This document shows, piece after piece, positions 16,730 through 49,320 of a stretch of 64,000 bases of DNA. The first letter of the stretch is position 1. Each line of letters begins with the position of its first letter. The notes below the pieces were generated by a model. The model had not been told where the DNA came from. It did no database searches and was given only the letters and a program-made list of their open reading frames with translations. Both the position numbers and the translations under genes were made by a program. The stretch comes from Fomitopsis serialis (lineage: Eukaryota > Basidiomycota > Agaricomycetes > Polyporales > Fomitopsidaceae): positions 1 through 64,000 of the forward strand of contig NW_025955006.1 in the NCBI RefSeq assembly GCF_022376445.1. The letters run 5' to 3'.

Positions 16730-17193
16730 TCACAGGACAATGTTGACGCAGCCGATGGAAATGAGGTCACCCTTTTCAATAATCAGTTAGTCACTTCTCA
16801 TGTGCGCGAAGAGACCGTCACTTACAAAGCCATTCTCTTCGCAGCACACAGGGGCGTAGCTGCAGGACTGTCCGACAGTCAGAGGGCTGCAGCCGATCCC
16901 GATCAGGTCCTCGAGGTCCTCAACAACAACGCCGATGAGCGCAAGCGCGGCGGCACCCGCAACGGACCCCGCCTGAATAGGGAAACCTGCGTCAGTACAT
17001 CGCATACGCTATACTGGTGCATTCTTACAGTCGTGGTCGTCTGGCAGCATTGCGCGCCGCCGGCGACGTTGCACTGGCTGACGGACGTAGCCGTGGGCGT
17101 GGCAGTCACAGTGACGGTGGTCGTGGGCTCCTCCCATGCAAAGGCGGCGGTCGCGAGGGAAGCGGCGGCGAGAAGGCGAGTGAACGAGAACAT
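16730..17193 (-). CDS. Class I hydrophobin (copy A)
   Basis: A small secreted amphipathic protein that self-assembles on fungal walls and at air-water interfaces. The start is MFSFTRLLAAASLA, a clear signal peptide. After splicing, the product is 117 residues with the eight-cysteine pattern C-CC-C-C-CC-C: SQCNVAGGAQCC, IGIGC, GQSCSY, PVCCEENG, ISIGC. Exons are 17193-17029, 16972-16826 and 16771-16730; introns are 56 and 54 nt, the second using a GAAAAG acceptor. The gene is intact and has a TATA box 88 nt upstream. Its closest relative, on the opposite strand at 20,232, shares a nearly identical first intron and second exon. Confidence 0.93.
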
Positions 17194-20231: not shown

Positions 20232-20716
20232 ATGTTCTCATTTACTCGTATGCTCCTCGCCTGTTCCCTCGCCCTCGTCGTGGTTGCGAAGCCTTGGGAG
20301 CAGCCCACGACGACCATCACCGACACCGCTGCGCCGACGGCCACCACCATCAGCCAGTGCAACGTCGCCGGCGGCGCGCAGTGCTGCCAGACGACCACGA
20401 CTGTAAGAATGCACCAGTATAGCGTATGCGATGTACTCACGCAGGATTCCCTATCCAGGCTGGGTCTGTTGCGGGTGCCGCGGCGCTTGCGCTCATCGGC
20501 GTTGTTGTGGAGGACCTCGAGAACATCATCGGGATCGGCTGCAGCTCTCTGACTGTAGGACAGTCCTGCAGCTACTCCCCTGTGTGCTGCGATGAGAATG
20601 GCTTTGTAAGTTTGTTTTGATGCTCCTGGACTACGTGTCGTGGGGACTGACGGACAATCTATATGGATTCACAGGGCGATCTCATCTCCATTGGCTGCGC
20701 TCCGATCACCGTCTGA
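20232..20716 (+). CDS. Class I hydrophobin (copy B)
   Basis: An intact 119-residue hydrophobin. The signal peptide begins MFSFTRMLLACSLALVVVA; a Thr-rich linker and eight cysteines follow in the class I pattern (SQCNVAGGAQCC, IGIGC, GQSCSY, PVCCDENG, ISIGC). Exons are 20232-20402, 20459-20605 and 20675-20716; introns are 56 and 69 nt, both phase 0. It forms an inverted pair with copy A, whose ATG is 3.0 kb away. The two proteins differ in the signal peptide and the last few residues but are almost the same in between. The role is coating hyphae or spores with a hydrophobic layer. Confidence 0.94.
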
Positions 20717-30239: not shown

Positions 30240-31030
30240 AAGACCTCTATGGCGTTGCATATGTAGGCAGGACTGAGTCGATACAGCAGAAACCACAGAT
30301 GCTCGCGAAGAGCACGGTGAGGAAAAAATTGGCTGTGATCCGACAGCGCAAGAGTAGTCTGAATCGAGTTTCGCAGGAGCAGAGCTCCGCGAGCCGCGAA
30401 GTCAACTGAGGGACAGTCATCCGCTCGCACGCGCCATGAAACCACTCTCGTCTTCCTACAGATCGGATGCTGTTCGAGCCCGCCACATCCGCCTGACGCT
30501 ACCGGTGTCCTCGAGCAAGAGCCGAGCACTGCGAAGACGCTAATGGTGGGCACGTACGAGCAAGATGACCGCCCTGTCCCCGCGACGTGTTCCAAAGCTG
30601 CACCCCGACCCTCCGCCTTCACATGGCCGACCGGTACAGGCAAATGTCATGGCCCACCCACAAGCAAAACGAGGCCGAGACCCTCCCGTAAGTAGATGGA
30701 AGGCCATGCTACGCCTTCTCCGGGTATGCGGGATGCAGCTGTGTTTCTGATACGTCGCGCCAGCCTGTGAGGCTGGGACCCGGCTGGGGCCGATCGAGGG
30801 GGACCGCTCAGACCTTGGCCCGCTCACGAAAGCAGACGCGTGTAGCGTCCTGTACGTTGTGAGCCTCGCGGCTTTTGCGCTGTCGGAGGGAGAGGGGCTC
30901 CTGTCGTGGGCTGACAGGAGGAGCCGACTCGAGGACAAGACAATCGTGGCCGCCGCCTTATATACGAGGGAGGGCGTATCTCAGATTCAGGTGTGGCTAA
31001 GCTGGAAACGTGATAGGCCCCTAATAGACC
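30240..31030 (-). repeat. Copy 1 of a ~0.8-kb inverted duplication
   Basis: Read on the minus strand it starts near a TATATAAG box (about 30,960) and shares long near-identical blocks with 34,380-35,110 on the plus strand, for example GACAGCGCAAAAGCCGCGAG, CAGCCTCACAGGCTGGCGCG and GCGGAGCTCTGCTCCTGCGA. Every frame in both copies is broken, so this is a dead gene or a non-coding mobile sequence. The two copies lie as an inverted pair around the HyuB gene. Confidence 0.7.
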
Positions 31031-31247: not shown

Positions 31248-34020
31248 TCAGAATCCAGCCTGCGCCGCCTCCCTCTCTGCCAAACTCCCCCTCGGCGCCC
31301 ACGCCTTGACATGGCTATGGTCCGTCTCGGGTCCTTCGCCGTGCTCGACAGCGCCCCACGCACCTGCGCCAGGCGTCTCGATCAGCAGCCGGTCGCCCTT
31401 GCCCATCCAGACCGTTGCCTTCCCGCCGATGTTAATATTGCGCGGCTGAAGTGGCGCGGGCTTGCTATCCCCGATGTCCTCAGGGAAGTCGCCGTCCTCT
31501 TTGCGCGCCTGCTTTACCCAGGTGTTGCGGCCCATCACGCCGGGCTCGCCGCCTTCCATACCGTACGGCTGGCGCGTGCGACGCTGCCCGGGACACGTTA
31601 GTCTCCGCTGAAGCGATCACACGCCGCTACGGAAGGACGCACCTCAGAGAGGATGGACACCTGGAGACCCTCCGTGAACTCGATCTCGCGCACGACGCCG
31701 TCGCCCCCGCGCCACTTGCCCTTCCCGCCGCTGCCGTGGCGCAGGCCAAACTGGTGCACGAGCACGGGGTAGCGCCGCTCGAGGATTTCGACGTCGCCAA
31801 TACGCGTGTTCGTGATGTGCGTGTGCACGCCCGACGTGCCGTGCCAACCGGGGCCAGCGCCGGAACCGCCTGCGATGGTCTGCGGCGGATTTCAGGGACA
31901 TGGAAGACGTAAAGGAGTATGAGGAACCGACCTCGTAGTAGCCCCAGCCAGTGATGTTGTTGCCGTCCTTGTCCTTGCCACCCGCGCCAAACGTCAAGTT
32001 GCTGACGGCCACGTCAGCAATTAACGAAAGATGAACCACGGACACACGCACTTGGTACATCCCTGGCTCGCCGCACACGCCCTGAACGCCTTCAACACCA
32101 CATCGACCATGCGCTGGCTCGTGAGCACGTTCCCACCACAAACAGCTGCGGTCCTGCTCGGGCTGAGGAGGCTGCCCTCGGGGATAACGACCGTAATCGG
32201 GACGAGACAGCCCGCGTTGAGCGGGATGTCCATGTCGAGCATCGCGCGCATGCAGTATATCACTGCAGAGTGCACGACGCTGATCGGCGCGTTCAGGTTC
32301 CCGCGCACCTCGCAGCCCGTGCCCGTGAAGTCGCACACGGCGGAGCCCTCTGCCTCGTCGATCGTCACCTTCAGTTTGATCTGCAGAAAGGGTGAGGGGT
32401 GGTGGTAAGACGACGAAGGAGATAGCAGCGCACCGGAGAACCGTCGTCGAGGTAGTCGATGGCCTCGAGCACGTTCGTGCCTGCGCGCTTGGCGGCGTCC
32501 CGGAGGAGGTTTCTAACGGATTGCTCCGCGTTGGACCGGATGTGGAACATGTACTCCTGGACGGTCTCGAGCCCATAGTCATCCACGACTATCAGACCGT
32601 CAGTGTGACAGCGCTTTCAGCGGACCAGAGCCACTTACTCGCTTGGATGAGTTGAATGCCCTTGTGGTTGGCCGCGATTTGCTGGATAACAGGTGATGAT
32701 CAGTACCAGGGAGCTCAACCTTTGAAGGAGGACCACATACGGCCTTCAGATCGCTCTCGACGTCCTTGATGTTCCTGCACCCCGAGCTCCCAGGGTACTG
32801 CGCCGGCTTGTTGACCATGTACTCGACGAGCTCGTCATGGTTGTACACTCCCCCATCCACAACCTTGAAGCTCTCGATCTGTGCGCCCTCCTCGAAGATG
32901 TTCGTAGATGTCGGCGGCATTGACCCGGGGAGGATACCGCCGATGTCGGCGTGATGCCCGCGCGACGCGGTGAAGAAGATGATTTCGTTCGTCTTGGTGT
33001 CGAAGACGGGCGAGATGATGGTGATGTCAGGCAGGTGCGAGCCGCCCGCCCAAGGCGAGTTCGTCATGAGCACGTCGCCGGGCTTGAGCGACTTGCCGTG
33101 CAGCTTCATCTGGTAGCGTACCGCACTGTAGGACGTGATGAGCATCTCATAATTAGTGTACAAGGTAATGTGGAATATTGTGCATGGCTGTTCGGTATAC
33201 CACCGTGCCTCAACGAATACCACACTTGACGTGGTCAAGACTGCATCATCGGTGTTCGGTACTAGATTCAGTGGGCCATGTTCGGATAGACACATACGCT
33301 CTCCCAATTGAGAGAATGTATGCCTGCGAGAGGGCTGGGACACCATTCACGGGACCCCGGCGGTATCACGCAGTCCAAAGCCAAGCATGCATACGCATAC
33401 AGCGACTGCATCCATTCCAGACGCTAGAATCACGAGATCCACACCACGGCTAGTCGCTATTGCGAGACGCAAGCGTGATTCGCAAGGGTAGAACCATGGC
33501 ACCCAGACGCCAGCGTCCTTGGCCATTCCATACCAATTCCCCTCCGGAAAATTGCCCACCACGGATATGTGGCATGGGAGGGTCGCAGCTAGCCACGATC
33601 TGCGAGGGCGCATTCTGTAACACTCGATCCAGATACCAGCATAAGAAGCTCTGTAAAGCGAGAGAACGGACACTCCGCTGTCTGCTCCCCCAGGCGCATC
33701 TCTGACTTTGGGAGAGTAACATGTCTAGCCACGCCCGACTGCCAATTTCTGAATATACAAGCAAGACCAATCATACTCCCAACGAGATCGTGTACTCACA
33801 AACTCATCGAACCCAAGTGAATGGGAATGAACGGCGCGTTCGCCACCAGGTCTCCGTCAGGCGCAAACAGCGCGCAAGAGAAGTCCAGACGCTCCTTGAT
33901 GTTCGTACTGATCGCTGTTTGCTGTAGCGAACGGCCCATCGCCTCCGCCACGCTCATGAAGCGGTTGGCGAAGAGCGTGAGGAGGATCGGGTCGGCGGCC
34001 TTATAGTTGGGCTGAGACAT
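31248..34020 (-). CDS. Stand-alone HyuB / 5-oxoprolinase C-terminal-half protein
   Basis: An intact 591-residue protein in eight exons (34020-33800, 33125-32741, 32681-32639, 32588-32434, 32380-32052, 32001-31932, 31879-31643, 31583-31248), with every junction in phase. The HyuB signature runs through it: [103 protein letters not shown] and the end [15 protein letters not shown]. In 5-oxoprolinase (5-oxo-L-proline + ATP to glutamate, gamma-glutamyl cycle) and in bacterial hydantoinases, the HyuB half works with a HyuA ATP-grasp-like half. Fungal 5-oxoprolinase is normally one ~1,300-residue chain; no HyuA half lies upstream, and a TATA box sits about 60 nt before the ATG. Intron 1 is 674 nt, ten times the others. 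Confidence 0.88.
33126..33799 (-). other. Oversized first intron of the HyuB gene
   Basis: The exons join as GGTTCGATGAGTTT / TGCGGTACGC with a GTGAGT donor and CTACAG acceptor. The interior has no recognised gene, terminal repeat or poly(A). All other introns of this gene are 50-59 nt, so about 600 bp of extra DNA probably entered the intron. Confidence 0.55.
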
Positions 34021-34076
34021 AGCGGAGAGTGAGCGCGTAGAACGAGCACGATGAACCCTAGCTGCCTCTCCAGTGC

Positions 34077-34083
34077 TATATAT
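34077..34083 (-). promoter_or_regulatory. TATA box of the HyuB gene
   Basis: TATATAG on the minus strand, 57-63 nt before the ATG at 34,020. It supports the gene starting here rather than being the tail of a longer oxoprolinase. Confidence 0.5.
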
Positions 34084-34379
34084 CGCGCCCTGAAAGAGGG
34101 GCAATCGTCCGAGTCAGACCTTCAGTTATCGTTCCGGACAAGGAGGAGCAGATTAGCCACCGGCGCGCAGAGATTACTAGATTAGCCATTCAGGCGGCGA
34201 TCAACCAGCGCGTCTTTCCGGGATTCAAGTCGATATCTGCGGTGAGAGGGCACCTTCGGAATTGAAGGCAGCTGCGGGTGGTGGAGGAGGGTCTGTGCTA
34301 TGGTGTCTGATGTAGGCAGTATGGATGGGTTGCTCACGCCGGAGTGTCGACTGTCCAAACCGTCTCAGCCACACCTGGA

Positions 34380-35110
34380 TCTAAGATCCGCACTCCGCTA
34401 CATAAAACAGCCGCGGGTCGCCACATTGTCTTCGTCGAGACGGTCTCTCGTCCGCCCACGACGGGTGCCCGCTCTCCCCCCGACAGCGCAAAAGCCGCGA
34501 GGCTCACAACGTACAGGATGCATCACGCGTCTGCATTCGTGAGCGGGCTAAGGTCTGAGTACTCCAGTCCCCCTCGATCGACTCTAGCAGGGTCCCAGCC
34601 TCACAGGCTGGCGCGACGTATCAGAAACACAGCTGCATCCTGCAAGCCCGGAGAAGTAGTAGCATGGTTCAAGTCCAGGTGCCGAAGGATTGCGGCGGTA
34701 GGGCTGCTTGTGGGCGAGGTCCAACTTTGCCGCAGCGGTCCTGTTATGTGAAGCGGAGGGACGGATGCAGCTTTGGGACCGCCGCGGGGACAGGGCAAGC
34801 TTCACGCTTGTACGCGCCGATCGCTATCGTCTTCGCATTGTTCGACGCTTGCTCGAGGATGCAATCAGCGGCAGGAGGATGTGGCGAGTTCTTTAATTGT
34901 CCTCGAAAAGCATTCACTGCATATCACTGCATATCAGGAAGAATGTCGTGGTCAAATGGTGCGTGCATGTGGACGGTGTCCGTTAGTTCACTTCGCGGCT
35001 CGCGGAGCTCTGCTCCTGCGAAACTCGATTCAGACTACTCTTGCGCTGTCGGGTCATACCCTATTTTTTTCCTCACCGTGCTCTTCGCGAGCCTTCTTAT
35101 GCTGTTTCTA
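34380..35110 (+). repeat. Copy 2 of the ~0.8-kb inverted duplication
   Basis: The plus-strand counterpart of 30,240-31,030. Homology begins around CAGCCACACCTG (34,366) and ends around TTTTTTTCCTCACCGTGCTC near 35,085. Scattered substitutions and small indels separate the copies, so the duplication is old. Confidence 0.7.
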
Positions 35111-35899
35111 CGTGGCAATATATCTACGTTCGGCCACGCATGCCGCTGTCTGTGGGAACGAGCTTCAACAATCCGTGCATTTGTTGCCCACTCTGTCAAT
35201 ACATGCAGGTATGTGCCCGTCGACTTCAATGAAGGCTCGGATGACATGCAGCTTTGGTAGGATCTCCGTATTTCGGGGTCGCAGGCGACTGGACCATGAT
35301 GGCCTCGGCGTTGCCTCAGCGCCATCCTAACTATGAGCAGCGTGAGCGACTACTGCTTCCGTGAAGAAAGATTTTAATACTGGTTATCCACTGTCAGGTT
35401 CCCGCTTGAACTCGGGCTGAAGTCAACAAGCAGGAGTAACTTCAATATACGATTGCCCTTCGGTTTGTCTCTACAGAATGAGAGTGCATAATCGTTACCA
35501 CCTCCATTGCACCGATCCGGGCCCGGGACGTCTCCTCCACCATGCCCTCAGCAACAAAACTGTATAGTCATTCTTCATGCCGCTCATTCATTTGCTCTAC
35601 CAATGCAGGTTATCGTGTGTGCGAGCCTTCCGTCGCTCATGACCCGCACCTCGCGCACTCCGCAGCAATCATCTCGACAGGCACGACACCCTCACCGATC
35701 CCCGTGCTCGCAGGCATCTTCACATTACGGCGCTCAGGTAAGCTACAAGCGACGCGCACAACACGATCCATTCCTGACAAGATGTATACACCGACGACCA
35801 GCAGTCATACGTACGACGTCATTGTCACCATACATCCGCGTGCTACGACGCAACCAACGGAGACGAGGCTTTCCTGCATATCGGGAACACGGTCAGAAC

Positions 35900-36130
35900 G
35901 ACATCTAACCTGTCTCGCGAACGCAGTAACTCACGATGCCCCTGTGTTCGCAGCACACGGGCGCTTTTCTGACTCGCCAACGGTGAGGCCCCGCCGCCTG
36001 TGTTGCAGGGTACCGACGGAGTAGGGTGGCGGCGCACCCTGTGTTCGTGGGCGCACTGCTGGACGCAGCGGGGGCGGCGGCGACGGCGACTGACGGATAC
36101 GGCGATGCAGATGCGGGTGAGTGAGAACAT
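35900..36130 (-). pseudogene. Decayed, internally deleted hydrophobin (copy D)
   Basis: The minus strand begins MFSLTRICIAVSVS, a hydrophobin signal-peptide start, but frameshifts follow. Pieces of the cysteine pattern remain: CNTGGGA directly followed by LTVGES and PVCCEHRGI with a GTGAGT donor at about 35,929. The middle (between the first cysteines and the LTVG stretch) is deleted. No last exon was found. Confidence 0.65.
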
Positions 36131-36139
36131 GTTGGTGCT

Positions 36140-38980
36140 TGTGAAATTGAACGAGCGGAAGAAGTGCTGAGACGTTCTAGAATTTTACGCTGAAAGTATG
36201 ATTCCCGATGGTTCCCTGTCGATGGTTGATATCATTCTCGCGGACAACATGGGTTAATCGACTGAGTATTTCCTAACAATGACGCGAGATCTAACACTGC
36301 TGAAAGCTTGCCATTCACAACTCATGCATGTAGCCCTTTCGCGTCTCAATAAATGAACATTCGGGTCCCGCTGGAAGCTCGTGTCTGCAGTTACTGCTGT
36401 ATCCGTATGTCCGTCAGAGGGGACTGTCGCGCTCACCAATAATGAACAACGTCGTTTCCTAGTCATATCAGGCCCCGAGCAAGACGATAGTCATTGCACG
36501 TCCGAATGTCGAGCAGCGAGCTTCGTCGCGACAATCGCTGAGCATAATTCGTTTTCTGTTCCATTGCCCCGAGGCCGATGCTGCGATAACTGCGGAACTG
36601 ATCAGTCCGTACTGTACATGATGATTGAGTAGGAGTACATGTCCGACGCGACTGCGGATCAATTACCACATTTCAGTATACTCTGTGATTGTTTGCAAAG
36701 TCGGAGAACGGAAGCAAGTGCGTTCGAAAGACGACAAGGCTTCTAAGATGAGTACGAGGAGGTGGAGGTCCGAATGTCCAGCCTAGCTAGCCACAAGCGC
36801 GTTTCGCACGTGCCACCTACTAGTACTAACACGACCGAGGCGGCCGCAGTGCTGTCCTGTACTTTCTCCGATCCTTCATGTGTACTCGTCATGCTCGCTC
36901 GCTGCCAGTTAGCCTTGAATGTACCAGCAAATTCAGATTTCAGTACATCATCCCGCAGATGCGAACGCGGCGAGGCAAATAGTAATCACGGATGGAACTT
37001 ACGTGCGTCGTTGCTTTCTCGTGGTGGTCAACTTGTGGTCAATCCGTGTTTGGCATCACATAGGCTGCCACTTTACTCGCCCATCTTTTTGTGTAAGGAC
37101 ACAGATTTATACTGGCATAGCGAAGCTCAGGAGGGTGGCAAGGCGCTGGTCAACACAATGACGGTGTCTCCCGCATTTGCCTGCCAGTGTCGAGGACGGG
37201 AACGGACCCTTCACACGTTCGCGCGGTTCACGCCAGAATAATCGAATCTAACGATCCGCAGAGTAGTTTCAGTAGGAGGAAGACTGATGCAGGGTGCGTG
37301 TCCATATCCTCCAGCAATGCCGACTTACTTAGCTTGCATTCATCTAAGTGTTCCCAAAAGACGTCCTCGCAATCGATGGCGCTCCGTCTCAGGCATGCAG
37401 CATACGTTGACTGCATCGCGGCCTCGTACATTGCGATGGGTGCGTCCAGTGTGCTCGCCCCCGACTCGACGTCACCATCGCTTCTCCGTATCCGGGTCAT
37501 GCTCTTGCGAAGTCATCACCGTGCGGCGTGTTCTCGCTACCTCGACCCATCTCGGCATCGTGGGGCCCCCGCGTGCGATGCGGTTTTCAGGCCGGAGCGC
37601 GGCACAGGGCTCGTTCCCGCTTGGCCAGCGCATAAACGGCCAGTAGACGTACCCACTAGCTGGCGCAACACTGCTCACTTGAAAGCGTCTTATTGGTCCT
37701 GTTCATCGGGACAGCAATGCATTGTCACGTTGTCTAGTGGCTGGACGTATTAGCGACGCGCGTTGAGTATGGTCGCTGGCATTGAGACAAACGGTGACGT
37801 AGCATCTGCTCCCAGTTACTGCCACGACACACTTATTCTTCCTCATTGCAACTCGATATATATATGTGTGTTGTGACCTTTGCAAAACAGGCTATTTGGT
37901 TGTCCTCAAAGGCTTCCTTTCATCCATACTTACCGAAGGGGATATTCGGCAGCAAGCTGTGCTACGTATGGTCAATGAAATGCACCCTGGTGAGTCTGCG
38001 TTCATATACCTACGAGCTACCTGACATCTCGCTAGGTGTTGAACAATAGTGCGTGCTCGTGGCGGGCGAAGTGTTACTTACACTGACGTGTGTCCTTTAT
38101 TAGAGGTGTTGGATGCAGGTACCCTCGTCTTCAGCATGAATACTGCAGACGAATTCCGAGATACTAGGTACCTGCGTTGCTTGGTCGCGGAGGCTCGCAG
38201 ACGCACAATATGCTTCGACCCGACATCGATGATATGCCCGAAAGGCTATTGGTTCGCTTTGTAATAGGACTGCCGTGCGTCTCTCATGTCACTCTTATCG
38301 GGGACGCATGTGCGGCTCAGCCGTTGGCTTCATCGGAACTTCTGATTGTTGAGATTCCAGCATATCTTGGACCACACGACAAGCTTCTGCCACCGGCGTG
38401 GACGCCTGCCGAAAACTCTGCGCACATTGCTGCGTACTGTATGTCGTACTTTACATGGTTCACTCGGTTTGAATCCTCTCACAGTGGCCGGATAGATGAC
38501 TTGACGACTGTTTGTGGCATGGTCACGAAGGGGAGTCCGGACACATCTCGTCACAATATTCGGCAATGTTGCGCCCACGATGGCCGCTTTCATCTGACCT
38601 CGTGGGTGACGCATCCATGACAGCGCTACGGCATGAATGCGTCCGTGAACTCGTGTCACGGAAGCCAAGAGATACATCCACCGTCGAGCTTGCTCTGTAC
38701 TTCAGGGAATGACTGGACATGGTATCTCTCTGTGTACTCTTCATGACTGGAGAGGACGACTTACTCTTGTACAGGTTGTATGCATACAATGGGTGAGCCT
38801 TGGCATCATTTGCGTGGCACGTCCTCTCGGTAAATTCTATGTCCGACAGTGCCACTGCAGTTGATATGTGGAAGCTCACTATGTCCGCTGACCATGTTCC
38901 CAGGCAAACACTGCCATACAGAATGATTGCATATAACAAGTGACTGGGAGAGCTTGTTCGTGCTTCCCCGAACTCCCTGT
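36140..38980. other. No recognisable gene
   Basis: Open frames here (for example a 37,500-37,228 minus-strand frame with AMYEAAMQSTYAACL) match no family I know and lack splice-linked partners. Confidence 0.4.
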
Positions 38981-41900
38981 GCTGTTCTCAGTCATCACTG
39001 CTTGTTTGAAGGCATACAACATGGCAGACACCTCACATCTGAATACACATGAAGCATACTCAGCATTGAGACAGTAGGTCTTCCTGTTTAGATGTCATAT
39101 GTCAACATGGCATTACTGAATATTCTGTAGGAGATATCAGATGCTTGTGGTCAATCCACAGCTCAATGGGGTGGACAAAAGTGGTTGTGAGTCAATCAAC
39201 AGTGTTGTTGTCTATTGTGCTGAAAATCCAACAGTCTGGACTAACACACTGAACATGATACCTGCTGCTTTCCCTGTTCAAACTGGCCAAGAATCATCTT
39301 TACAGTCAGTGTCAAATATTGAGTTCTTTGCCTCTAGAGCCATGAGTTGGCTGGAGAAGGACCCAGTCGCTTTAATCTGGGGTCAATGCAGTACTTGTCT
39401 TGTCCATGCTTCTAAGATGTATCAGCCAGATAGTGGTAAAGCATACCACTTGAGTCAAGCAGCCTTTTGCAGCCTTGAGGAGTTCCAAATGACCAGAGTT
39501 ATCTCAACTCTCAACAAGGCCATCAGGCTCTATAGAACTGCTATGCCATTGTTTGGCAGAGAAAAAATTCCTGCTGCATGTCTCATGAGTATAGGGCATG
39601 CATATCAGTTAAGGTTCAATGTGTCAAGTACTTCCCTTGACTTGAAACAAGCTGTCTTCTTTAAGCAACAGGGTGTGAACTCTACTCATATCAATGATAG
39701 AAGTACTAGGTCAGCTAATCTGGCAAGCTTGGCTACTTCATATCAATCCTGCTTTGACAAGTCAGGAACTTTGTCAGACATTGACAGTGTCATTGCTTCA
39801 CTCAGAGAAGCCATAGAAGTATCTTCACAAGAGTCTGGCCTTCTGAATAATCTTGGTGGTGCATATCTTCATCGCTACCCAATTAGTCACATGCACTCAG
39901 ATCTCCAAGGTGCAGTTGAGTCATTGAGAAAAGGCATTGCAATTGCTCCCAAAGAATATACTCATCTCCATGATCTGTGGGCAAATCTTGCCAAAGCCTA
40001 TCAGGAACTGTTTGAAAGTACTCCCAATCAGATACATGGGCTGGAAGCTGTCAAGGCCTGTCAACAGGCACTTTCTATGGAGTATCCAGGAATATTTGGG
40101 TTTTTGGAAGACTTTGTGCTTGCTTCAATGGTGGATTCTGAGCAAGAGTCCAAATGGTTGCATATAAATGAATTTGTGAATGCACTTCAGGGAGCTTTGG
40201 ACACCACTACTGTGTCTAATACTCCTCACCTCTGGTTTTTGGGCAAGATATTTTTGAAGCTCTACAGCCTTGAGGGAGATTTGGCCTATATTATGATGGC
40301 TATCCCAATTCTCAAGACAATGTGTGGACTGTCTACATCAGATGATAGGGCAGGCATTCTTGTCAACCTAGCATATGCCCACCAAGCTTTGTTTCTCCAA
40401 TTGCATGAGCTTTCAGACATTGAAGAAGCTATCACACTGCTTTTGGAGGCCTCTCAATCTCCACAGGACAGATTTCACAGCTTGCACAATCTAGGGAATG
40501 CTTATAGTGCTCGCTATCAGTTGTTGAAGACACAGTCAGATATAGAAGCTGCTATCATCACACTCAAAGAAGCTGTTGATCTGATACCACCTTCTCATCC
40601 AGAAAGAGCTCTTTGCCTGGACAATCTGGGTGCTGTATACATGGTTCAGTTCAATAGTGACAAGAGGAAACACATCATAGACCAGGCAATACTCATTAAA
40701 GAACAAGCACTAGCAGTTCCCTCAATCACAGAATCCAGGAGACATGATATTACATGTTCTCTTGGATATGCATACACATCTCGCTTTGAGACATTTCAGG
40801 ATCCTTCTGATATATCTAAATCCATAGCACTGCAGGAAGCTGTAGTTGATCACTTGCCAGATGTAAATATGTGGAAGCCTGGCTGGTTGAATAACCTGGG
40901 CAACTCTTATCACCTTAGGTTTAAGCTCAATGATGAGCCATCTGATATGGTCCAGGCAATCAAGAGGCTTGAGCAATCAATAAAACTGACACCTAAGGAC
41001 CATGCACACTTGGCACATAGGCTCATAAATCTAGGTCAGAGATACATCCACAGAGACTGGATGGGAGCCACAGATATGATACCTTCTGCTTTGGACAATG
41101 CAATGGAGAAGGCCATCCAATCTTTCAGACAGGCAACATACTGTCATGCAGCAACATCCAGTGTCAGGATGCATGCAGCTCAGCAATGGGGTCGTTTTAC
41201 AGTCCTGCAAGGACCAGATTCATACCCTCAGGCTGTCCAAGCATATACAGAAGTATTCAATCTACTGCCCAGTGTTGTATGGTTGGGACATACCATTGAC
41301 AAGCAATATGATGAGTTGGCACAGTATAATGGCATAGCTGGGGAAGCTGCAATGGTTGCCATTGTCATGAGAAACCTTGCTCAAGCAATTGAGTGGCTTG
41401 AACAGGGAAGATCAATTGTGTGGAACAAGCTATTGCAGCTAAGATCTCCTCTGGATGATCTATACAAGGCAGATGAGCACCTGGCCAATGAGCTCAGGAT
41501 GGTTGCTAAGCAATTGGAGCATGCTAGTCTCACAAGAAATGATTCACATGGGGTACAAGTGAGAGATGTTCAGATTGAGAAAGCAGCACAATCTCACAGG
41601 AAGCTGGCTGCAAAGTGGGACACACTTTTGAAGCATGCACAAGGATTGCCTGGTTTCAAACACTTTCTGAAACCAATGCCCTTCACTGAATTGTTGAGTG
41701 TGTCTGAGCAGTGCCCAGTGATCATGCTCTCAATGATGACTAAAGGCACAGTATCTGTATGTGATGCTCTGGTGCTCATGCCTGGTAGTAAAGATGTGAA
41801 GCATGTGTCACTCACAACAATGACACTAGGCATCCTTGATGATCTCTGCCTGTCCATGAGGAATGTATCTAAGGGATGTGCAGCCCGGGGATTAGTAGAA

Positions 41901-43160
41901 GCAACCACAGAGCAGAGATTTGCATTTCTGAGTCCTGTTGATTCTTCTCAGAACCAGACATTCTATGATATTCTCAAGGTTCTCTGGACTCATGTTGTGT
42001 CACCAATCCTGCAAGCACTTGCTGTTCCAGTAAGTACTCCTGTGGCTTGCTGATATATACAACAATGATTAACTGATCACTTGCACTTCCATAGGTTTCA
42101 CTTCAGAGCCAATTGCCCCATTTTTGGTGGTGCCTTAGTGGCCCTCTTGCATTCCTCCCCATTCATGCTGCAGGGGATTACTCTCAAAGTGAACCAGGCC
42201 ATAAGATCTCTGACTATGTTGTCTCATCATATACACCTACTCTGTCAGCATTGCTCATGACCAGGCAGAAGAAAGTCAGCCAGAATCCACACTTGTTGGG
42301 TATTTGCCAGCCTCAGAATCCTAGAGCACTTCCAATCCCATATGTCAAAGATGAATGGACTGGCATCCAGAACTTGGCTGAGGCTAATAGCATGGGCTGC
42401 TCTAGCCTAGAAAATGCTGAAGCTACTGTTGACAAGACTCTTGCTGAGCTTTCCTTAGCTAACTGGGTCCATTTTGCATGCCATGCATCACAGGACAATG
42501 AGAAGGCCACTGACAGTGCATTCATTCTACATGATGACAACCTGAAGCTCATAAGGTTGATGCAAGTGGAGCTGCCTCATGCTGACTTTGCATACTTGTC
42601 AGCTTGCCAAACTGCAACTGGAGATCCCAAGCTGTCAGGACAAGCTGTCCATCTAGCTGCAGGGATGCTCTATGCTGGGTTCAGGAGTGTCATTGCCACT
42701 ATGTGGTCCATAAATGACTGTGATGGTCCTGAGGTTGCCAAAGAGGTCTACTCTCACTTGCTAGCAACCAAGGACAGTACCCAGGCTGCATATGCCCTTC
42801 ATCATGCTGTACAGAAGCTGAGGATGAAGCCAGAGTACAACAATCTCAAGGATTCTTCATTCTTGGCTTGGGTTCCATTCATACATCTTGGCTGTTGAGA
42901 TACTTGTGTTTCCATATGTTGGTTGATTTGTTATATAGCAGTTCTTACCATGTATGCATGCCATTTCCTCTTTCCTATTTGTATTGCTACAGAAGATGCT
43001 GTTCTTCGCTGATATGATCAGATGCTATGTCTGTTGTACAGTAGTTTGCCATACCTTGCACTCTGTCTTGTCTATTTGTCCTGTTGTTTCTTGTGTGCCA
43101 CTTACCTGCTGGATTGAATGATGTTTCCTGTAGTTTCAATGAGAACATGATCATGAGTTT
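38980..43160. other. Sharply bounded CpG-depleted block
   Basis: Between about 39,000 and 43,000 I count by eye only about seven CpG dinucleotides, six of them in the 3.9-kb gene body; flanking DNA has several per 60-base line. Arginine is encoded by AGA/AGG and Ser, Pro, Thr and Ala codons ending in CG are almost absent. Loss of CpG is what long cytosine methylation causes, yet the gene inside is fully open. Confidence 0.85.
39021..42898 (+). CDS. TPR-CHAT protein
   Basis: An intact protein of about 1,251 residues. Proposed exons: 39021-39073, 39131-42029 and 42095-42898, with introns of 57 and 65 nt that keep frame. Residues about 130-800 carry many TPR-like helical repeats (LGNAYSARYQL, LDNLGAVYMVQF, LNNLGNSYHLRF, LINLGQRYIHRD). 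The C-terminal CHAT domain (caspase HetF-associated with TPRs) holds the catalytic pair in WVHFACHAS and AYLSACQTATGD, then AGMLYAGFRSVIATMW. CHAT is a caspase-fold (clan CD) peptidase; bacterial TPR-CHAT acts in gasdermin and CRISPR-linked defence, and basidiomycetes have expanded families of unknown role. The start at 39,021 is chosen because exon 1 (MADTSHLNTHEAYSALRQ) joins in phase. Confidence 0.9.
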
Positions 43161-43570
43161 CGTCATCACGGACTTACAGTAGGTCTACACATCCAGTCTG
43201 TCACTGTTCTCGTACCCTGACCATTTGCCCAGTCCGTCCTTGATATCGAGCAAATGTGTACCATAGAATATATGGGCAGTCGGCTTGACCTAGGAGCAAC
43301 GGTACGCCCCAGCATTTACCGTCAATCGATGTGTCCCGTGCAATGCTCTGTACGTAGGGACGGACGAGACGCACCTTATCCCATTCGCAAATCCGTCCGC
43401 TGGGCGAACGTGCGAGGTGGACACCTAGTCAAAGTTATTGATCAGTCAGTTCGCTCGTGAATACGTCCTACAAATGTGCGTCGGGCATGCGAGGGCTCAA
43501 CACGGCAATCGTGCTTGAGCGAAGGTGTACAGAACAGCGGCGCGGGAGCAAAAGCCACACGGGAACTGTT

Positions 43571-44650
43571 TCACGCACCCCAAACGGACGTCGTTCCCGT
43601 CAGGCTGTTCATTGATGCCACACACGTCCCGCACGTCGCGCAGCGTAGGCGTGTCTTGTGCGGTTTCAATGGTGTGTTATATGCGCGCAGTACGTGCGGC
43701 AGCGAGACGAGTTCGATTTGCGAAGCGGGGATGGTTGACGACGAAGTGTGAACGGTCGCGGCGGATGACGGCAGTGCGAATGCGACGGCAGAAGAGCGCA
43801 GATGGATGGTATGGATGAACGGGCAGCCTGTCAAGAAATCGTTAGCGATCTCTCAGAGAGGTGCAGACATGGTACACGGCCTCCACGGCGGGAACAGATA
43901 CGCTGTACTCGATCGGCACTCACCAGTAAGCTTTTGGCACTGTGTGCAGTGACAGTACGCCGTCCTGAGGACGTCGGTCGCAGAGAATGTATAAGAGATC
44001 TGCCCGCAGAAACAACCACCACTCAGCTGTTCCCCAGCCGCCTCGTCCGACGCGTCTTCGCTCGCGGCGTCGCTTGTCTCATCCGCGTCTCCTCCCTGCA
44101 CGCTGCACGAGCCCGGTGCACCGACGTCCTCTGGGACCCTGTCGCGGTACTTCCTCAGTCCGTCCCTGATGTCCAGCATCCGTTCTCCGTAGTGGTAGTG
44201 CAAGACCGGACTTATCTTCTCCCACATCGCTATCCTCCCCGCGCTCTCTTCACCCGCGACTGGTATCCGCGTCAAAGTTCCGCCCCACACAGCGGTATGT
44301 CCCTCTTTCTTGTTCACAGATCCGACCCCGACGCCGCAGATGTTGCATCTGTAGCGAGTCTCGTGTGGGTGCGATGCTGGCGTATACGTGTGCAATGCAG
44401 AGTCCGGAGTAGCGCAGAAAGCGACGGATTCTAGCGGGAAATGGACAGTCGGTACGAATGGTCCGCCTATGATATGGAAGTGAATTGAGGTGGTATACAA
44501 TAGAAGATGATTGGCGGTGCACATACCTGTTAACCGTTGGCACTTCGTACAGTGACAGTAGCCGGTGGATGTTGGGATAGACGTAGCGATGTAGGTGAGC
44601 GCGCCACAGTGGCAGCTACCGCACAACCCGGTCTGTTCTAGTGTTTGCAT
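43571..44650 (-). CDS. Tandem CENP-V/GFA-domain protein
   Basis: A 307-residue protein in three exons (44650-44527, 44466-43924, 43827-43571; phase-1 introns of 60 and 96 nt). Two glutathione-dependent formaldehyde-activating (CENP-V/GFA) domains lie in tandem, each with its zinc-binding cysteines: GSCHCGAL, YCHCTKCQRLTG and CNICG in the first; GGCFCGQI, YCHCTQCQKLTG and CATCG in the second. An acidic linker (DADETSDAASEDASDEA) joins them. The second domain ends right after SVWGA, so its usual C-terminal helix is missing. The family binds glutathione adducts or acts as S-lyase; the substrate is unknown. Confidence 0.88.
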
Positions 44651-45314
44651 TGCTGCGACAACGAATAGCTTTGTCTTTGTCTTATGTAGGCAGAGGTTCT
44701 TTGAATCGCGTTCATTACTAGTTCATTACAGCGAGATGAGCGCAAGATGAGTGGAAAGAACCGAGGGAGTGTAGTGCTTAGGCGCCAGACCGCCGCCGCG
44801 TCGTGCAACTTGAAGCCTGCCAAGCGCAATTTCATATGTAACTATGCAGCTGGTCTGACCAGCCTACATGGTCCCAATCAATCAGGTAGCTCTCGACGTA
44901 TATGAAGGTATCGTTAAATGGGCGCACTCAAAAACAAAGTTCGCGAGTATGAAGGAATGCGGTGTATGTCCTAGTAGTACTAGTATGAGGCAAGGCTGGA
45001 GGGATAGCGAGTCCTCAAGCTCTTGACGAAGCTGATCGTGGGAGGTATGAGGAGTGGCTCGCACTTAGCATATCACCCATACCTGCGTCCAGTGCAGAAC
45101 ATGTTGTCGTTTGATAGTGACTTCCCGTTCCGAGTCGGCGGTGCATTGATCGAGCAAGGGCAGCAAATATACCCAGCATACTGCGTATGGCACACGGAGC
45201 GAGCACTGGGTATCATGTTACCTCGAGAGCGATGCAATGAAGCGATGTGACATCTACGAACCCAAGAACCGACACACACGCATCTAGGGCATCAAGTTCA
45301 GATTCAGCCGACCT

Positions 45315-46719
45315 TCACCGCTGAAGCGCGAAGGCCGTCCACTGAAACCCGATTGAGCGCTCACTCCTGCACGAACACAAATGACGACTCACCGCATCCG
45401 ACGTCGGCGCGTCCACGAACGACACCTCCGAGCTCTCCGCATCGTCGCCATCGAACTGCCTGATGGCCGTGCCCTGCACGCGCAGCTGGAACTTCTCCTT
45501 GCCCTCCACGTCAGCGTAGTCCTTCGGGATCTTGATCTGGATCGTCTCCTCGCCCTGCCTCGACGGCTTCCCGCCGACGAGCTCGAACAGACAGTCGTCC
45601 CGGATCTTCTCCCTGAGCACGACCTCGCGCTTTCCGATGTTGAACGCGGCGTGCCGCATGCCAGAGGGGGTGCTGACGGCCATGACGTGCATCGGCACGC
45701 CGCCGGACTGCGCGGGCAGGAGGTCGACCGGAGTCCCGGAGCGCAGGTGCACGCGCGCGAAGGGGAGGGTGGATGGGAAGCTCAAGAATAGCCCCCCCAG
45801 GGGGAGGTCTTTGACCTGCCGCGGCGTCCCGTGCGCGCGGAGCTGCACTCCGAAGGAGGCTCCCTTCGTGAAGCCGTACACTTCGCGCATGAGGTCGGCG
45901 GTGATGCGCGAGCCACGGCTGCCCGCACCCTTGTATTTCGGGCCGTAGTTACTGTGTGAGCGAGACAACGTTAGCACGAGCTCCGGGTCCAGAAAGTGTG
46001 ACGAAAAACCGATGCACGCACTGTATGGCGATCGCGGTGGGGAAGGTGCGGTACGGTATCCATACGACGCTCCCGCTGATGCCTCTCTCTGTCATGGCTT
46101 TGTACTCGACTTGCGTTGGGTACGCCGCGATGATGGTGCCGGTGGAGACCCTCGGCTCACCGCGCGGGGAGACGTCGCGATAGCCGCTAATGCTCGCCTG
46201 GCCTTGCAGCGAGTCCGCGTGGCCAAGGCGCAGGCTGAAGCGGAAGCCAAAGCTGGCTTCCATCATGTCCTTCTGCGCCTGTGTCGTGCTTGGGTCGCGG
46301 TAGCGCGCGGGGAAGAGATTGGGCAGACCGCGCGGGTAGAGGACCACACCCCAGTCATTCGGATCGTTCTCTACGGGTTTGGCCTTGAATGACTTGCAGA
46401 TATAGTACTTGTCCGCGGGGACGACGTAGTCGTCTACAGCGTTGAGCGCACGGACGGTGATGTCCCGCGACTCCTCCTTGTCAGGTCCGATGAGATTGTG
46501 ACCGGCGGTGAGGATGACGTGGTAGTCGGGTACGCCAGGGATGTTCACGAAGAAACCGTTGCCGAGGAATGTATCGGTACCCCTCTTGAATGCCATCTGC
46601 ACAACCCATTCGGTAGGTAGTGTTGCGAATGTGAGGCCGGTGGGTTTGACTCTATCCGGCTGCTCGCCTGTCCAGGAGGGGTGCTGCAAGTCGTCGGGGA
46701 CGTAAAATTTCCTGACCAT
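45315..46719 (-). CDS. Trypsin-fold serine protease, no signal peptide
   Basis: About 427 residues in three exons (46719-46022, 45951-45393, 45341-45315; introns 70 and 51 nt). The catalytic triad motifs are visible in order: ILTAGHNL (His), NDWGVVLY (Asp) and ERGISGSVVWI (Ser). A second part of about 190 residues follows (QLRAHGTPRQVKD, IGKREVVLREK, IQIKIPKDYAD), probably an additional beta domain; the last exon adds WTAFALQR. There is no signal peptide, so it probably acts inside the cell. Intracellular trypsin-like domains of this type occur as effector or partner domains in fungal and bacterial immune proteins. The ATG at 46,719 (MVRKFYVPDD) is the first in frame. Confidence 0.75.
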
Positions 46720-47360
46720 GGTTGACTCGAAGGCGTATCGATCCAATGGACACGTAGCAGTTGAAGAGAGACGTTCAGAGTAAGTTATCGAGGCTGCCAA
46801 CGGCGAGGAGAGTTACTGCACGCTGAGGGACTCCCGAACTGGCAGTCAGTGAACGGCCCTTAGGTAGTAGAACAAGAGATCAGACTTCCGCGGCTCCGAG
46901 TCCTCCTTGGGGAAATATGCCAACGGCAGCAATGGTTCCGTACAAAATGCCGCGGGTGTCCGTGTAGGAGCTAGTAAGTATGTAGTTCGCACTAGTCTCC
47001 TTCTTTGACTGAGTGGCCTATGTAGGGCTGTCTGATGAGCACCGCGCAGTTCAGGCATGGCTTACTATTCCCTTCAAGCTGCCATCCGGCCTATTGAAAT
47101 CAGCTGAGGTCTCCTGCTGGGCCCGGCATCGTGTCATTGTGTTCATCGAGAATGGAAGGATACACTTACGTCAAATGCACAGCGTGCCTCTGCACCAGCT
47201 GCCAGCACCTGGATTCAAGCATTCCCGCTCGTCTTCTGAGACGTTTTTGAGTTTTGAGCCGCGGATGTTCGAGGCGTCCCGGTACATACGGATTGGGATA
47301 GAACGGCTTGATCAACAGGCACAACAGATCGGTATCTTGCCCGGAAGTTCCCGATTTCGC

Positions 47361-47448
47361 CTTTCCGGCGGAAAGTGATCGAGATCTGAAGAAGCAGCGC
47401 TTTCCCACAAGAACTTATGTAATGAACCCGTAACGCGCAATGAACGGC
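47361..47448. repeat. Dispersed repeat, copy 1
   Basis: AAAGTGATCGAGATCTGAAG, then AAGCAGCGCTTTCCCAC and, a little later, AATGAACGGCGT. The same order of words occurs at 50,091-50,155. Probably remnants of one transposable sequence. Confidence 0.5.
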
Positions 47449-48077
47449 GTGTCACTGTCAGTGCAGGAGATGAAAGGCGCTTTCAAGTTCGACACACTCC
47501 GCCGTGACATTGGCAAGGTTCAGGCTGTCAATCAATCCCATACACCCAACACTAGGCCGCGCATATGCGCATCGATGACTCCGAATCAGAGGAAGTGCTG
47601 GAACTATCGAAATCTTGGATGCATTCGCGCGGGACAGGAGATGCCTCAGGCTGCAGGTATTGGCGAAGGCATAGCTAACGGTCTTTGAATCAACGGTGAG
47701 TGTCAGAAGGGACCAGTTGTCATCTGCGCAACATCTTACAGCGTGTACGTTAAAGTTGAGGTATTACCTGGGGCTAGCGTAGAGGATTTGCCAGTAAGCT
47801 GCGCCATCAACATGACCAGCGTGGTCCAAGGAAGCTTGAACGGAATTCAAGTATCTTCGGCGCGTCACTGGTCGGGTTCGTATACGCGATGGTCAACACG
47901 CTGGCTGTCCTAGTCATGAATGTCATGGAAGATCGCCTTGGTGACATACCGCTGGACACTAGTACTTACTGTCTCCGTCGGAGGCATATGGCACTGATTC
48001 GTAAAGGCTGCTGCCACAGCGAGATTAATGCGACAGCCATTACTACGAAGGAGGCAACTCAGCCAAATATTCCCGAC

Positions 48078-48260
48078 ATGTCCAAAACGAAGGACATTGC
48101 TCGCGGTCTCGCCACCAACGGCGCGGCGACTCGCGCTGACTATGGTGGCTGCTTAGGCTTTAACCTGCTCATCACCGACAATGGTAAACTGGTTGCCAAG
48201 TGCTGGATCAGCAAAGCATTTAGCGGGATGGCAACTACGTGTCGAATACCCGTAAGTCGA
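48078..48260 (+). pseudogene. Broken copy of the neighbouring propeller-like gene
   Basis: MSKTKDIARGLATNGAA followed by LLITDNGKLVAKCW and KAFSG matches the N-terminus of the intact gene at 49,320 (MSQVKDIARGLSANGAG, LLYTDSGKLVVKLW, EAFGD) for about 55 residues and then stops resembling it. It lies in the opposite orientation, 0.3 kb from the intact gene's 3' end. Confidence 0.75.
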
Positions 48261-48525
48261 TTCAACCAGTCTATGCTGACCACTGCATGCACATCTCTAA
48301 GTAGGAGCACAGACGAGATATCATTGAGGTGTTTCAGACAACGAGATAGCTAAACAACATGAAGAAATCCGGCGTAACGAAGCCCGTGTTGCCGTGACAC
48401 TGTGAACAAACAAATCGGGTCAGTGAGTTGTTCTCTGAATTCGGAAGAAAAGTGGTGCATGACATACATTGTCTCCAGAACTTGAACCCAGATCACAACA
48501 CATCCACAATGTGCGCGCAGTAGCA

Positions 48526-49320
48526 TCACGCGATCACGCAGTTCTGATTCTGGTTGACACACTCCGCCTTCACCTTGGACACAAAGGTGCCGTCCGCCTT
48601 GACGTCGCCAAGGACGACCTTCTCTCCGACAGCGGGGACCTGGAGCACCGCGCTCTCCTCCGTCAACCCGAACGCCTCGACCGTCTCCTTCGTGCCGCCG
48701 GTCGAGACGAACATCTGCTTGAGCACGCCGACCGGCGTGGGCGCCGCGACGCTGTCCGCCCACTTCTCCGCCTCGTAGAGGCCGTGGATGTACTGGTCCG
48801 CGGCGGAAACGTAGAAGACGTCGCCGCCGGGGTGAGAGAAACTGAGCGCGGTGCCGGCGAGGGGCTGCGCCGCCTTGGCGAGCTGGGTGGTCGCCCACGC
48901 CCCGCCCGCGGCGGGCTTCGAGAGGTAGGTGAGCTCACCCCCGGCGCCTTGGAAGACGACGCGGACGGTGTCCTGCCAGAGGGTGGCGGCGAGCTTGCCG
49001 GAGGGGTGCACGGCGAGCGCGGGGAGCGTCTTGTCTTCGGCCCACTCCTCCTCTTCCTCGTCGTACGAGAAGACGACCAGCTTCGAGCCGGAAGTGATTC
49101 CGACAACAAAGGACTTGGTGGTGGTGGCGACGTAGGCGGCGGTGGAGCCGGCGCGAACGGAGCTGGAGACGAGCTGCTCGTCGCCGAACGCCTCCCCGGT
49201 CCAGAGCTTGACGACGAGCTTGCCGCTGTCGGTGTAGAGGAGGTAGTTGCCGTTGTTAGCGGGGGTCGGCCCTGCGCCGTTGGCGGAGAGGCCGCGAGCG
49301 ATATCCTTCACTTGGGACAT
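48526..49320 (-). CDS. Beta-propeller / lectin-like protein
   Basis: An uninterrupted 264-residue protein without introns. Repeating units of about 45 residues carry alternating small and aromatic residues: NYLLYTDSGKLVVKLW, FVVGITSGSKLVVFSYDE, KLAATLWQDTVRVVFQG, GDVFYVSAADQYIHGLYEA. This recalls the fungal fucose-specific lectin propeller, though key sugar-site residues cannot be confirmed by eye. There is no signal peptide, as is usual for fungal defence lectins. A strong TATA box lies about 100 nt upstream, suggesting high expression. The third-position GC bias is extreme, giving long spurious open frames on the other strand. Confidence 0.72.
   Translation of the reverse strand: MSQVKDIARGLSANGAGPTPANNGNYLLYTDSGKLVVKLWTGEAFGDEQLVSSSVRAGSTAAYVATTTKSFVVGITSGSKLVVFSYDEEEEEWAEDKTLPALAVHPSGKLAATLWQDTVRVVFQGAGGELTYLSKPAAGGAWATTQLAKAAQPLAGTALSFSHPGGDVFYVSAADQYIHGLYEAEKWADSVAAPTPVGVLKQMFVSTGGTKETVEAFGLTEESAVLQVPAVGEKVVLGDVKADGTFVSKVKAECVNQNQNCVIA

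What the first reader, a model, noticed from the sequence alone, without database searches (positions are those of the whole stretch)
38980..43160. An intact 1,250-residue TPR-CHAT gene in a near CpG-free island
About six CpG in 3.9 kb, against several per line outside, with abrupt edges. CpG loss of this depth marks prolonged cytosine methylation, normally of transposons, but here the reading frame is perfect and codon choice avoids CpG. That implies a gene kept under selection while methylated, or a cassette recently moved in from a CpG-poor source.
Basis: partly seen in the sequence, partly recalled or inferred. Interest (0 to 1): 0.8.

Follow-up and report, generated by a model that had tools for sequence, protein, structure and literature searches.

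The report
CpG-erased family of fungal death-protease genes
In a wood-rotting fungus, several intact genes for caspase-like proteases have lost almost every CpG across the gene body, as if methylated for a very long time, while transposons sampled in the same genome have not; fungi are thought to have largely given up methylating working genes.

Summary
Window 38,970-43,160 holds 7 CpG (O/E 0.04; 1.08 outside) and one intact three-exon gene of 1,251 aa with TPR repeats and a CHAT protease domain.

The depletion is not specific to this locus. Of 10 non-redundant CHAT loci found, 7 are CpG-free islands in unrelated flanks and 3 are normal. Islands track the gene: the 5' edge lies -51 to +152 bp from the ATG in the five contigs measured, and several edges fall inside coding sequence. 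Lost CpG is largely accounted for by equal TpG and CpA, and arginine is roughly halved. Sampled transposons (30 RVT_1, 20 KDZ) are CpG-normal.

Some Rhodofomes, Daedalea and Sparassis homologues carry the same arginine-poor signature, while normal-class orthologues do not, so the state looks old and inherited by lineage. dN/dS is 0.21-0.28.

Best reading: long-lived CG methylation of gene bodies in a selected family (inferred; no methylation or expression data). A recent cassette from a CpG-poor source is not supported, although the locus is absent from the other haplotype. Whether other gene families share the state is untested.

The parts
38970..43160 (.). near CpG-free island, 7 CpG, O/E about 0.03-0.04
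39021..39073 (+). exon 1 of the TPR-CHAT gene (ATG at 39,021)
   Evidence: GT..AG splice reading, no RNA evidence
39074..39130 (+). intron 1, 0 CpG
39131..42029 (+). exon 2, TPR region
   Evidence: TPR_11 exactly at its cut-off
42030..42094 (+). intron 2, 0 CpG; an intron at a like place is seen by eye in C358 and C248
42095..42898 (+). exon 3, CHAT caspase-like protease domain (PF12770, E 3.9e-36)
42482..42484 (+). candidate catalytic His (ACH motif), invariant in 8 of 8 aligned proteins
   Evidence: role of the residue recalled
42605..42607 (+). candidate catalytic Cys (LSAC motif), invariant in 8 of 8 aligned proteins
   Evidence: role recalled
35381..43114 (.). 7.7-kb segment absent from the other haplotype contig C111 (left end 35,282-35,380 depending on the alignment); its left 3.6 kb is CpG-normal and single copy
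   Evidence: CpG

Best explanation
The island is the body of an intact TPR-CHAT protease gene. It belongs to a subset of TPR-CHAT genes in polypores whose transcribed regions have been methylated at CG for a very long time, probably by the basidiomycete maintenance enzymes (DNMT1-RFD and DNMT5). Methylated CpG decayed to TpG and CpA on both strands. Purifying selection kept the frame and the catalytic residues while CGN arginine codons were lost or replaced by AGR. The protein most likely works as a caspase-like executioner or sensor in regulated cell death or non-self recognition, like the TPR-CHAT protease of Podospora that activates a fungal gasdermin. The mark would keep the gene silent or restricted to one stage without destroying it. 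Shown: CpG loss tied to the gene body in 7 of 10 CHAT loci, TpG/CpA replacement, arginine loss, selection on two comparisons, normal CpG in the sampled transposons, and a DNMT5-type gene in the genome. Inferred: methylation itself, transcription, its timing, and the death-protease role.
For: Seven of 10 non-redundant CHAT loci are islands with O/E 0.00-0.05 and 3 are normal. CpG+TpG+CpA per base is nearly conserved (0.20 in islands, 0.22-0.23 in normal genes), and TpG about equals CpA. Arg is 3.2-3.7% in the 10 depleted contigs and 5.7-9.8% in the 5 normal ones, R/(R+K) 0.40-0.47 against 0.73-0.82. In five contigs measured (four loci) 5' edges lie -51 to +152 bp from the ATG and 3' edges +19 to +361 bp from the stop, with up to 12 CpG in the CDS before the edge. 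CpG left in islands is transient: 4 of 13 dyads differ between near-identical copies (C268/C358, C113/C255) against 12 of 306 in near flanks, p 0.0023. dN/dS 0.278 and 0.208. DNMT5-like gene: E 4e-82 to the chain called Rad8 in 7r76 (that this is Dnmt5 is recalled). In Ganoderma sinense 98.7% of 5mC is at CpG (passages of PMC4457147). A TPR-bearing CHAT protease activates a gasdermin in P. anserina (passages of PMC12881547).
Against: No bisulfite, nanopore or expression data. The model would predict CpG-poor transposons, and the 50 sampled were normal; they are best-scoring, probably young copies. No DNMT1-RFD match was found, but that search rang in no control genome either, and introns break such matches. 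C268 and C248 each carry a one-base frame difference from near-identical partners, and the C434 match holds a TGA and a TAG: assembly error, introns or real decay. Two 3' edges do not follow the gene end: in C12 and C767 the island stops about 172 and 38 bp before the end of the CHAT match. The polymorphic CpG may be new gains at the many TpG/CpA sites. A review says gene-body methylation was largely lost in fungi, with some exceptions (passages of PMC13297926).
Confidence: 0.6

Rival explanations
1. Repeat-directed CpG mutation (a basidiomycete RIP-like process in the sexual cycle) hit the duplicated TPR-CHAT genes, followed by selection for the copies that stayed open. Methylation in vegetative cells is not needed.
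For: RIP-like mutation with CpG preference is reported in Ganoderma (passages of PMC4457147). The family is multi-copy, and members of a fungal non-self gene family are known RIP targets (passages of PMC1805685).
Against: C667 has no nucleotide match at 1e-20 to the other 14 CHAT pieces yet is fully depleted. The sampled multi-copy RVT_1 and KDZ elements are not depleted. Depletion stops near gene ends, whereas in the Podospora RIP pseudogenes altered ratios extend at least 750 bp beyond. The window gene, C113 and C255 are open.
Confidence: 0.2
2. Selection against CpG in these transcripts or genes (RNA-level sensing or codon selection) rather than mutation.
For: The frame is intact and synonymous choice avoids CpG, including NNC|G junctions (1 of 379).
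Against: Introns and 5' and 3' non-coding parts are depleted too (1 CpG, about 16 expected). Replacement is balanced between TpG and CpA. Arginine is sacrificed: at 17 Arg-rich columns depleted proteins keep Arg in 88 of 217 cells against 515 of 731 in others. No such sensor is known to me in fungi (recalled).
Confidence: 0.12
3. A cassette recently moved in from a CpG-poor source.
For: The locus sits in a 7.7-kb segment absent from haplotype C111. Flanks of different islands are not alike.
Against: The segment's left 3.6 kb is CpG-normal and single copy. Island edges lie inside coding sequence in C358, C255, C248 and C667. Pairs with other genera, and rejection of one clade for all depleted rows (AU p 2.8e-5), would need several transfers. 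Most of the GC drop equals CpG decay (predicted 0.459-0.484, seen 0.439-0.454).
Confidence: 0.05

Closest known systems
Gene-body CG methylation of animals (insects, cnidarians) and plants
   Same: CpG is lost across the gene body while sequence outside stays normal; the 5' end of the CDS can be spared; genes stay under purifying selection. The animal and plant side is recalled and from search listings.
   Different: A fungus, where this is said to be largely lost (PMC13297926 passages); here part of one protease family, and depletion is nearly total (O/E 0.00-0.05). Methylation not measured.
RIP acting on the Podospora NWD/HNWD non-self recognition family (PMC1805685, passages)
   Same: Cytosine-directed mutation of a fungal cell-death/non-self gene family with repeats.
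   Different: RIP favours CpA, inactivated two pseudogenes and extended at least 750 bp outside; here CpG only, window frame open, edges near the gene ends.
TPR-CHAT proteases: Podospora gasdermin-activating protease (PMC12881547 passages); PDB 7zoq TPR-CHAT
   Same: TPR plus CHAT architecture and candidate His/Cys residues; weak sequence match to 7zoq, E 0.0029.
   Different: No gasdermin gene was identified next to it; function untested.
CpG methylation and CpG-type RIP of transposons in Polyporales (Ganoderma sinense, PMC4457147 passages)
   Same: CpG context, order Polyporales.
   Different: There transposons carry more of it than genes; here the sampled transposons are CpG-normal and part of a gene family carries it.

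Membership tests
TPR-CHAT protease family | CHAT domain | tested here: met
   PF12770 125.4 bits, cut-off 24
TPR-CHAT protease family | TPR repeats before the CHAT domain | tested here: met
   TPR_11 exactly at its cut-off (26.8 bits), three other TPR models below theirs; named homologues are annotated TPR-like or CHAT
TPR-CHAT protease family | catalytic His and Cys present | tested here: met
   invariant in 8 of 8 aligned proteins; role of residues recalled
Gasdermin-activating two-gene cluster | gasdermin gene next to the protease | tested here: inconclusive
   20 of the window's 57 ORFs of 150 aa or more scanned with Pfam, none called gasdermin; spliced genes not modelled
Gene-body CG methylation | 5mC at CG in the gene body | not testable with these tools
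   no methylation data
Gene-body CG methylation | CpG depleted across the body, normal outside, TpG/CpA gained | tested here: met
Gene-body CG methylation | gene is transcribed | not tested
   no RNA data
Neurospora/Podospora-type RIP | CpA preference, TpA gain | tested here: not met
   CA O/E 1.65 and TA 0.62 in the island, 1.12 and 0.75 outside
Neurospora/Podospora-type RIP | inactivating stop codons | tested here: not met
   window gene open for 1,251 aa; C113 and C255 open for 1,274 and 1,279 codons after one intron is taken out; C434 does hold stops in its match
Transposon-targeted CpG methylation of Polyporales | transposons CpG-depleted | tested here: not met
   best 30 of 147 RVT_1 and best 20 of 108 KDZ matches; matched domains O/E 0.79-1.40 in 49 of 50, one (L042) cut by the contig end, whole locus 0.92

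The most novel reading that the evidence does not exclude
Brown-rot polypores keep a dedicated, gene-body-confined CG methylation state on specific lineages of cell-death protease genes. It is inherited across gene duplication, dispersal and speciation, while transposons are not marked to the same depth. This would be a fungal counterpart of animal gene-body methylation, used to hold dangerous immune-type effectors in check. It arose at least twice within the family and rewrote protein composition (about half the arginine).
Probability: 0.35. Interest if true: 0.85.

Novelty: new variant of a known kind. Interest (0 to 1): 0.68.

Why it matters
Fungal methylation is held to be mainly a transposon defence, with gene-body methylation largely lost because it mutates coding sequence (passages of PMC13297926). 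Here intact, selected protease genes have paid exactly that cost almost to completion, on more than one branch of the family and, by protein signature, in other genera, while the transposons sampled have not. That makes a testable system for how a methyltransferase picks out a gene family, how long such a state lasts through duplication and speciation, and whether silencing is how fungi live with death proteases. It also suggests a cheap screen: arginine-poor members among homologues in GC-rich fungi.

Tried and rejected
Mobile-element boundaries: no convincing terminal repeats around the island, and by eye no target-site duplication at the junction with C111. An early impression that the C268/C358 island was 15 times less diverged than its flanks came from badly matched outer flanks; near flanks differ by about 1% (17 of 1,703, profile), and I dropped it. 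NACHT family as comparison: only 2 weak matches below cut-off. CpG state of other genes is therefore known only from the rest of the window and from 51 non-CHAT loci, of which 3 (L031, L059, L066) held short CpG-poor stretches. Codon selection alone: rejected by the non-coding depletion. PDB search at the default threshold found nothing. Rows dropped: one search used 50 named rows of the 235 homologues fetched by then, plus 15 own contigs; one search left out 7 near-duplicates; one search left out also C53, Cenococcum and Nocardia and added 2 rows (297 fetched by then). Results against the protein proxy: P0001, deposited for the depleted C268, scores 0.63, probably because its 1,910-aa model runs past the island. 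Gymnopus and Dendrothele proteins (0.35-0.49) also look depleted but stood in 'other', and the depleted group was named by arginine content after the first tree was seen, so the AU p and the count of origins depend on that labelling; 16 of 297 homologues fall under 0.48. Gln and His are the commonest replacements of conserved Arg in depleted proteins, but also in the others, so that point is weak. A first dN/dS run was wrong because a stop shifted the codon alignment and was redone.

Full report
Observation. Kilobase bins give 2, 2, 2 and 0 CpG in 39,001-43,000 and 62-122 in the other 60 bins. Seven CpG lie between 38,970 and 43,160; O/E is 0.04 inside and 1.08 outside, with TG 1.55 and CA 1.65 inside. 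The gene is three exons, 1,251 aa, one stop at the end, with TPR_11 at its cut-off and a strong CHAT match. Synonymous permutation of its own codons gives 73 CpG and recoding with the codon use of CpG-normal CHAT genes 243, against 6 seen; the 435 non-coding island bases have 1 CpG against about 16 expected.

Where it is. The window is contig C401 of a 66.19-Mb, 806-contig genome. Deposited Fomitopsis serialis proteins P0001, P0138, P0199 and P0237 lie on contigs of 366,554, 694,411, 45,741 and 558,405 bases, the lengths of C268, C667, C248 and C35. So the genome is that of F. serialis, Polyporales, Fomitopsidaceae.

The family in the same genome. Searches with the protein and with PF12770 gave CHAT genes on 15 contigs (such counts are lower bounds). 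Ten contigs hold CpG-free islands of 1.9-4.2 kb and five are normal. Merging near-identical contigs (C268/C358; C113/C248/C255; C53/C599; C35/C689) leaves 7 depleted loci (C401, C268, C113, C12, C667, C434, C767) and 3 normal (C223, C53, C35). The C434 and C767 pieces that I hold are cut at the left. In the all-against-all comparison of the pieces, different loci match inside the genes but not in the flanks, so the state goes with the gene and not with the place.

Edges. In the five contigs measured (four loci), the 5' edge lies -51, +20, +152, +152 and +70 bp from the ATG, and the 3' edge +262, +361, +19, +21 and +25 bp from the stop (C401, C358, C255, C248, C667). C255 and C248 have 12 CpG in the first 152 bp of the CDS and then almost none. 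Three 3' edges were judged only against the end of the CHAT match: C12 about 172 bp before it, C767 38 bp before it, C434 174 bp after it. Edges inside coding sequence argue against the island being an inserted unit and for a domain tied to the transcribed region, though transcripts were not seen.

Nature of the change. CpG+TpG+CpA per base is 0.20 in islands and 0.22-0.23 in normal CHAT genes. TpG and CpA are about equal (411/415 in C401; the widest gap is 319/354 in C667). Turning every CpG of normal genes into TpG or CpA would bring GC to 0.459-0.484; islands have 0.439-0.454. Arg falls to 3.2-3.7% from 5.7-9.8%, mostly AGR instead of CGN. At 17 columns with at least 40% Arg in 45 other homologues, depleted proteins keep Arg in 88 of 217 cells against 515 of 731; Gln and His are the commonest replacements, but they are so in the others as well. 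All this is what CG-specific deamination would leave, not CpA-type RIP.

Still under way. Between near-identical copies, 4 of 13 CpG dyads in islands differ against 12 of 306 in near flanks (Fisher p 0.0023; two pairs, C248 not used). New CpG gained at the many TpG/CpA sites would also raise the island fraction, so this shows that island CpG is short-lived, not which way each site changed. dN/dS (NG86) is 0.278 for C401-C358 and 0.208 for C113-C255; the pairs with C248, cut at its first stop, gave 0.36 and 0.42. CpG avoidance restricts synonymous change, so these may be too high.

Other species. No DNA of relatives could be read here, so I used arginine content as a proxy, calibrated on the 15 own contigs (complete separation). 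Daedalea P0124 and P0232, Rhodofomes P0123, P0177 and P0183 and Sparassis P0198 have R/(R+K) 0.33-0.47, while F. serialis C35 (P0237), Daedalea P0236, Rhodofomes P0292 and Laetiporus P0216 have 0.67-0.78. The normal four form one clade (99/100). Depleted rows pair across genera (C113 with Rhodofomes P0183 and C767 with P0177, both 100/100), and holding all 13 depleted rows as one clade is rejected (AU p 2.8e-5), with the caveat on labelling told under Tried and rejected. In an earlier tree, 6 own depleted genes and 4 low-arginine relatives formed one clade (97/94), which the second tree left partly open. NCBI now files Daedalea quercina in Fomitopsis. So the state seems older than the split of these polypores, with more than one origin. 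Gymnopus and Dendrothele proteins also score 0.35-0.49; whether that is base composition or the same thing is open.

Transposons and machinery. The best 30 of 147 RVT_1 and best 20 of 108 KDZ matches are CpG-normal in the matched domain (49 of 50 measured there). These are high-scoring and so probably young copies. The only PF00145 match is a DNMT5/Rad8-type gene, E 4e-82 to the Rad8 chain of 7r76. DNMT1-RFD was not found, but that search rang in no control genome. A review and a Ganoderma paper put CpG methylation mainly on transposons, and the review says gene-body methylation was largely lost in fungi, with some exceptions (passages of PMC13297926 and PMC4457147).

Presence and absence. Contig C111 matches window 34,001-35,380 (88%) and 43,115-49,000 (91%) with the two parts 14 bases apart, so 35,381-43,114 is missing there; a second alignment ends the left match at 35,282. 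The left 3.6 kb of that segment is CpG-normal and matched only itself in the genome. Insertion and deletion cannot be told apart without an outgroup.

Function. CHAT proteases are among those clustered with gasdermin genes in fungi, and a TPR-bearing one activates a gasdermin in Podospora (passages of PMC12881547). The His and Cys are kept here. Most likely this is a regulated-cell-death protease whose gene is held down by methylation; both halves of that sentence are inference. My searches listed no paper on CpG-depleted TPR-CHAT genes; I saw listings and the passages named, not whole papers, and the library lacks most subscription journals.

Noticed in passing
L066:1-630 (contig C46 from about 485,556): A CpG-poor stretch beside a KDZ transposase match, starting at the locus end, with a unit like AAGAATAAGACTATTCC seen several times and no open frame over 105 aa; CpG-poor islands may thus also occur in repeats.
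   Followed up: partly
L059:1-470: Two CpG-poor stretches beside a KDZ transposase match.
   Followed up: partly
window 30323-30897 and 34469-35069: Inverted repeat arms 75-92% complementary about 3.6-4.6 kb apart, next to the left end of the presence/absence segment; C111 also holds a similar stretch.
   Followed up: no
window 16820-17136 and 20295-20611: 317-nt inverted repeat, 91% complementary, 3.2 kb apart.
   Followed up: no
window 43115-43160: Just right of the haplotype junction, 2 of 4 CpG of C111 are missing in the window copy by eye, as if depletion had spread about 45 bp into shared flank.
   Followed up: partly
G000 contigs C36, C13, C90, C479: Fungal protein kinases (PF17667) are expanded: 165 matches with 107 of 312 candidates scored, often several per contig; CpG state unread.
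   Followed up: no
P0001 (deposited F. serialis protein on C268): The deposited model is 1,910 aa and its composition suggests it runs past the CHAT gene into CpG-normal sequence; probably a fused annotation.
   Followed up: partly
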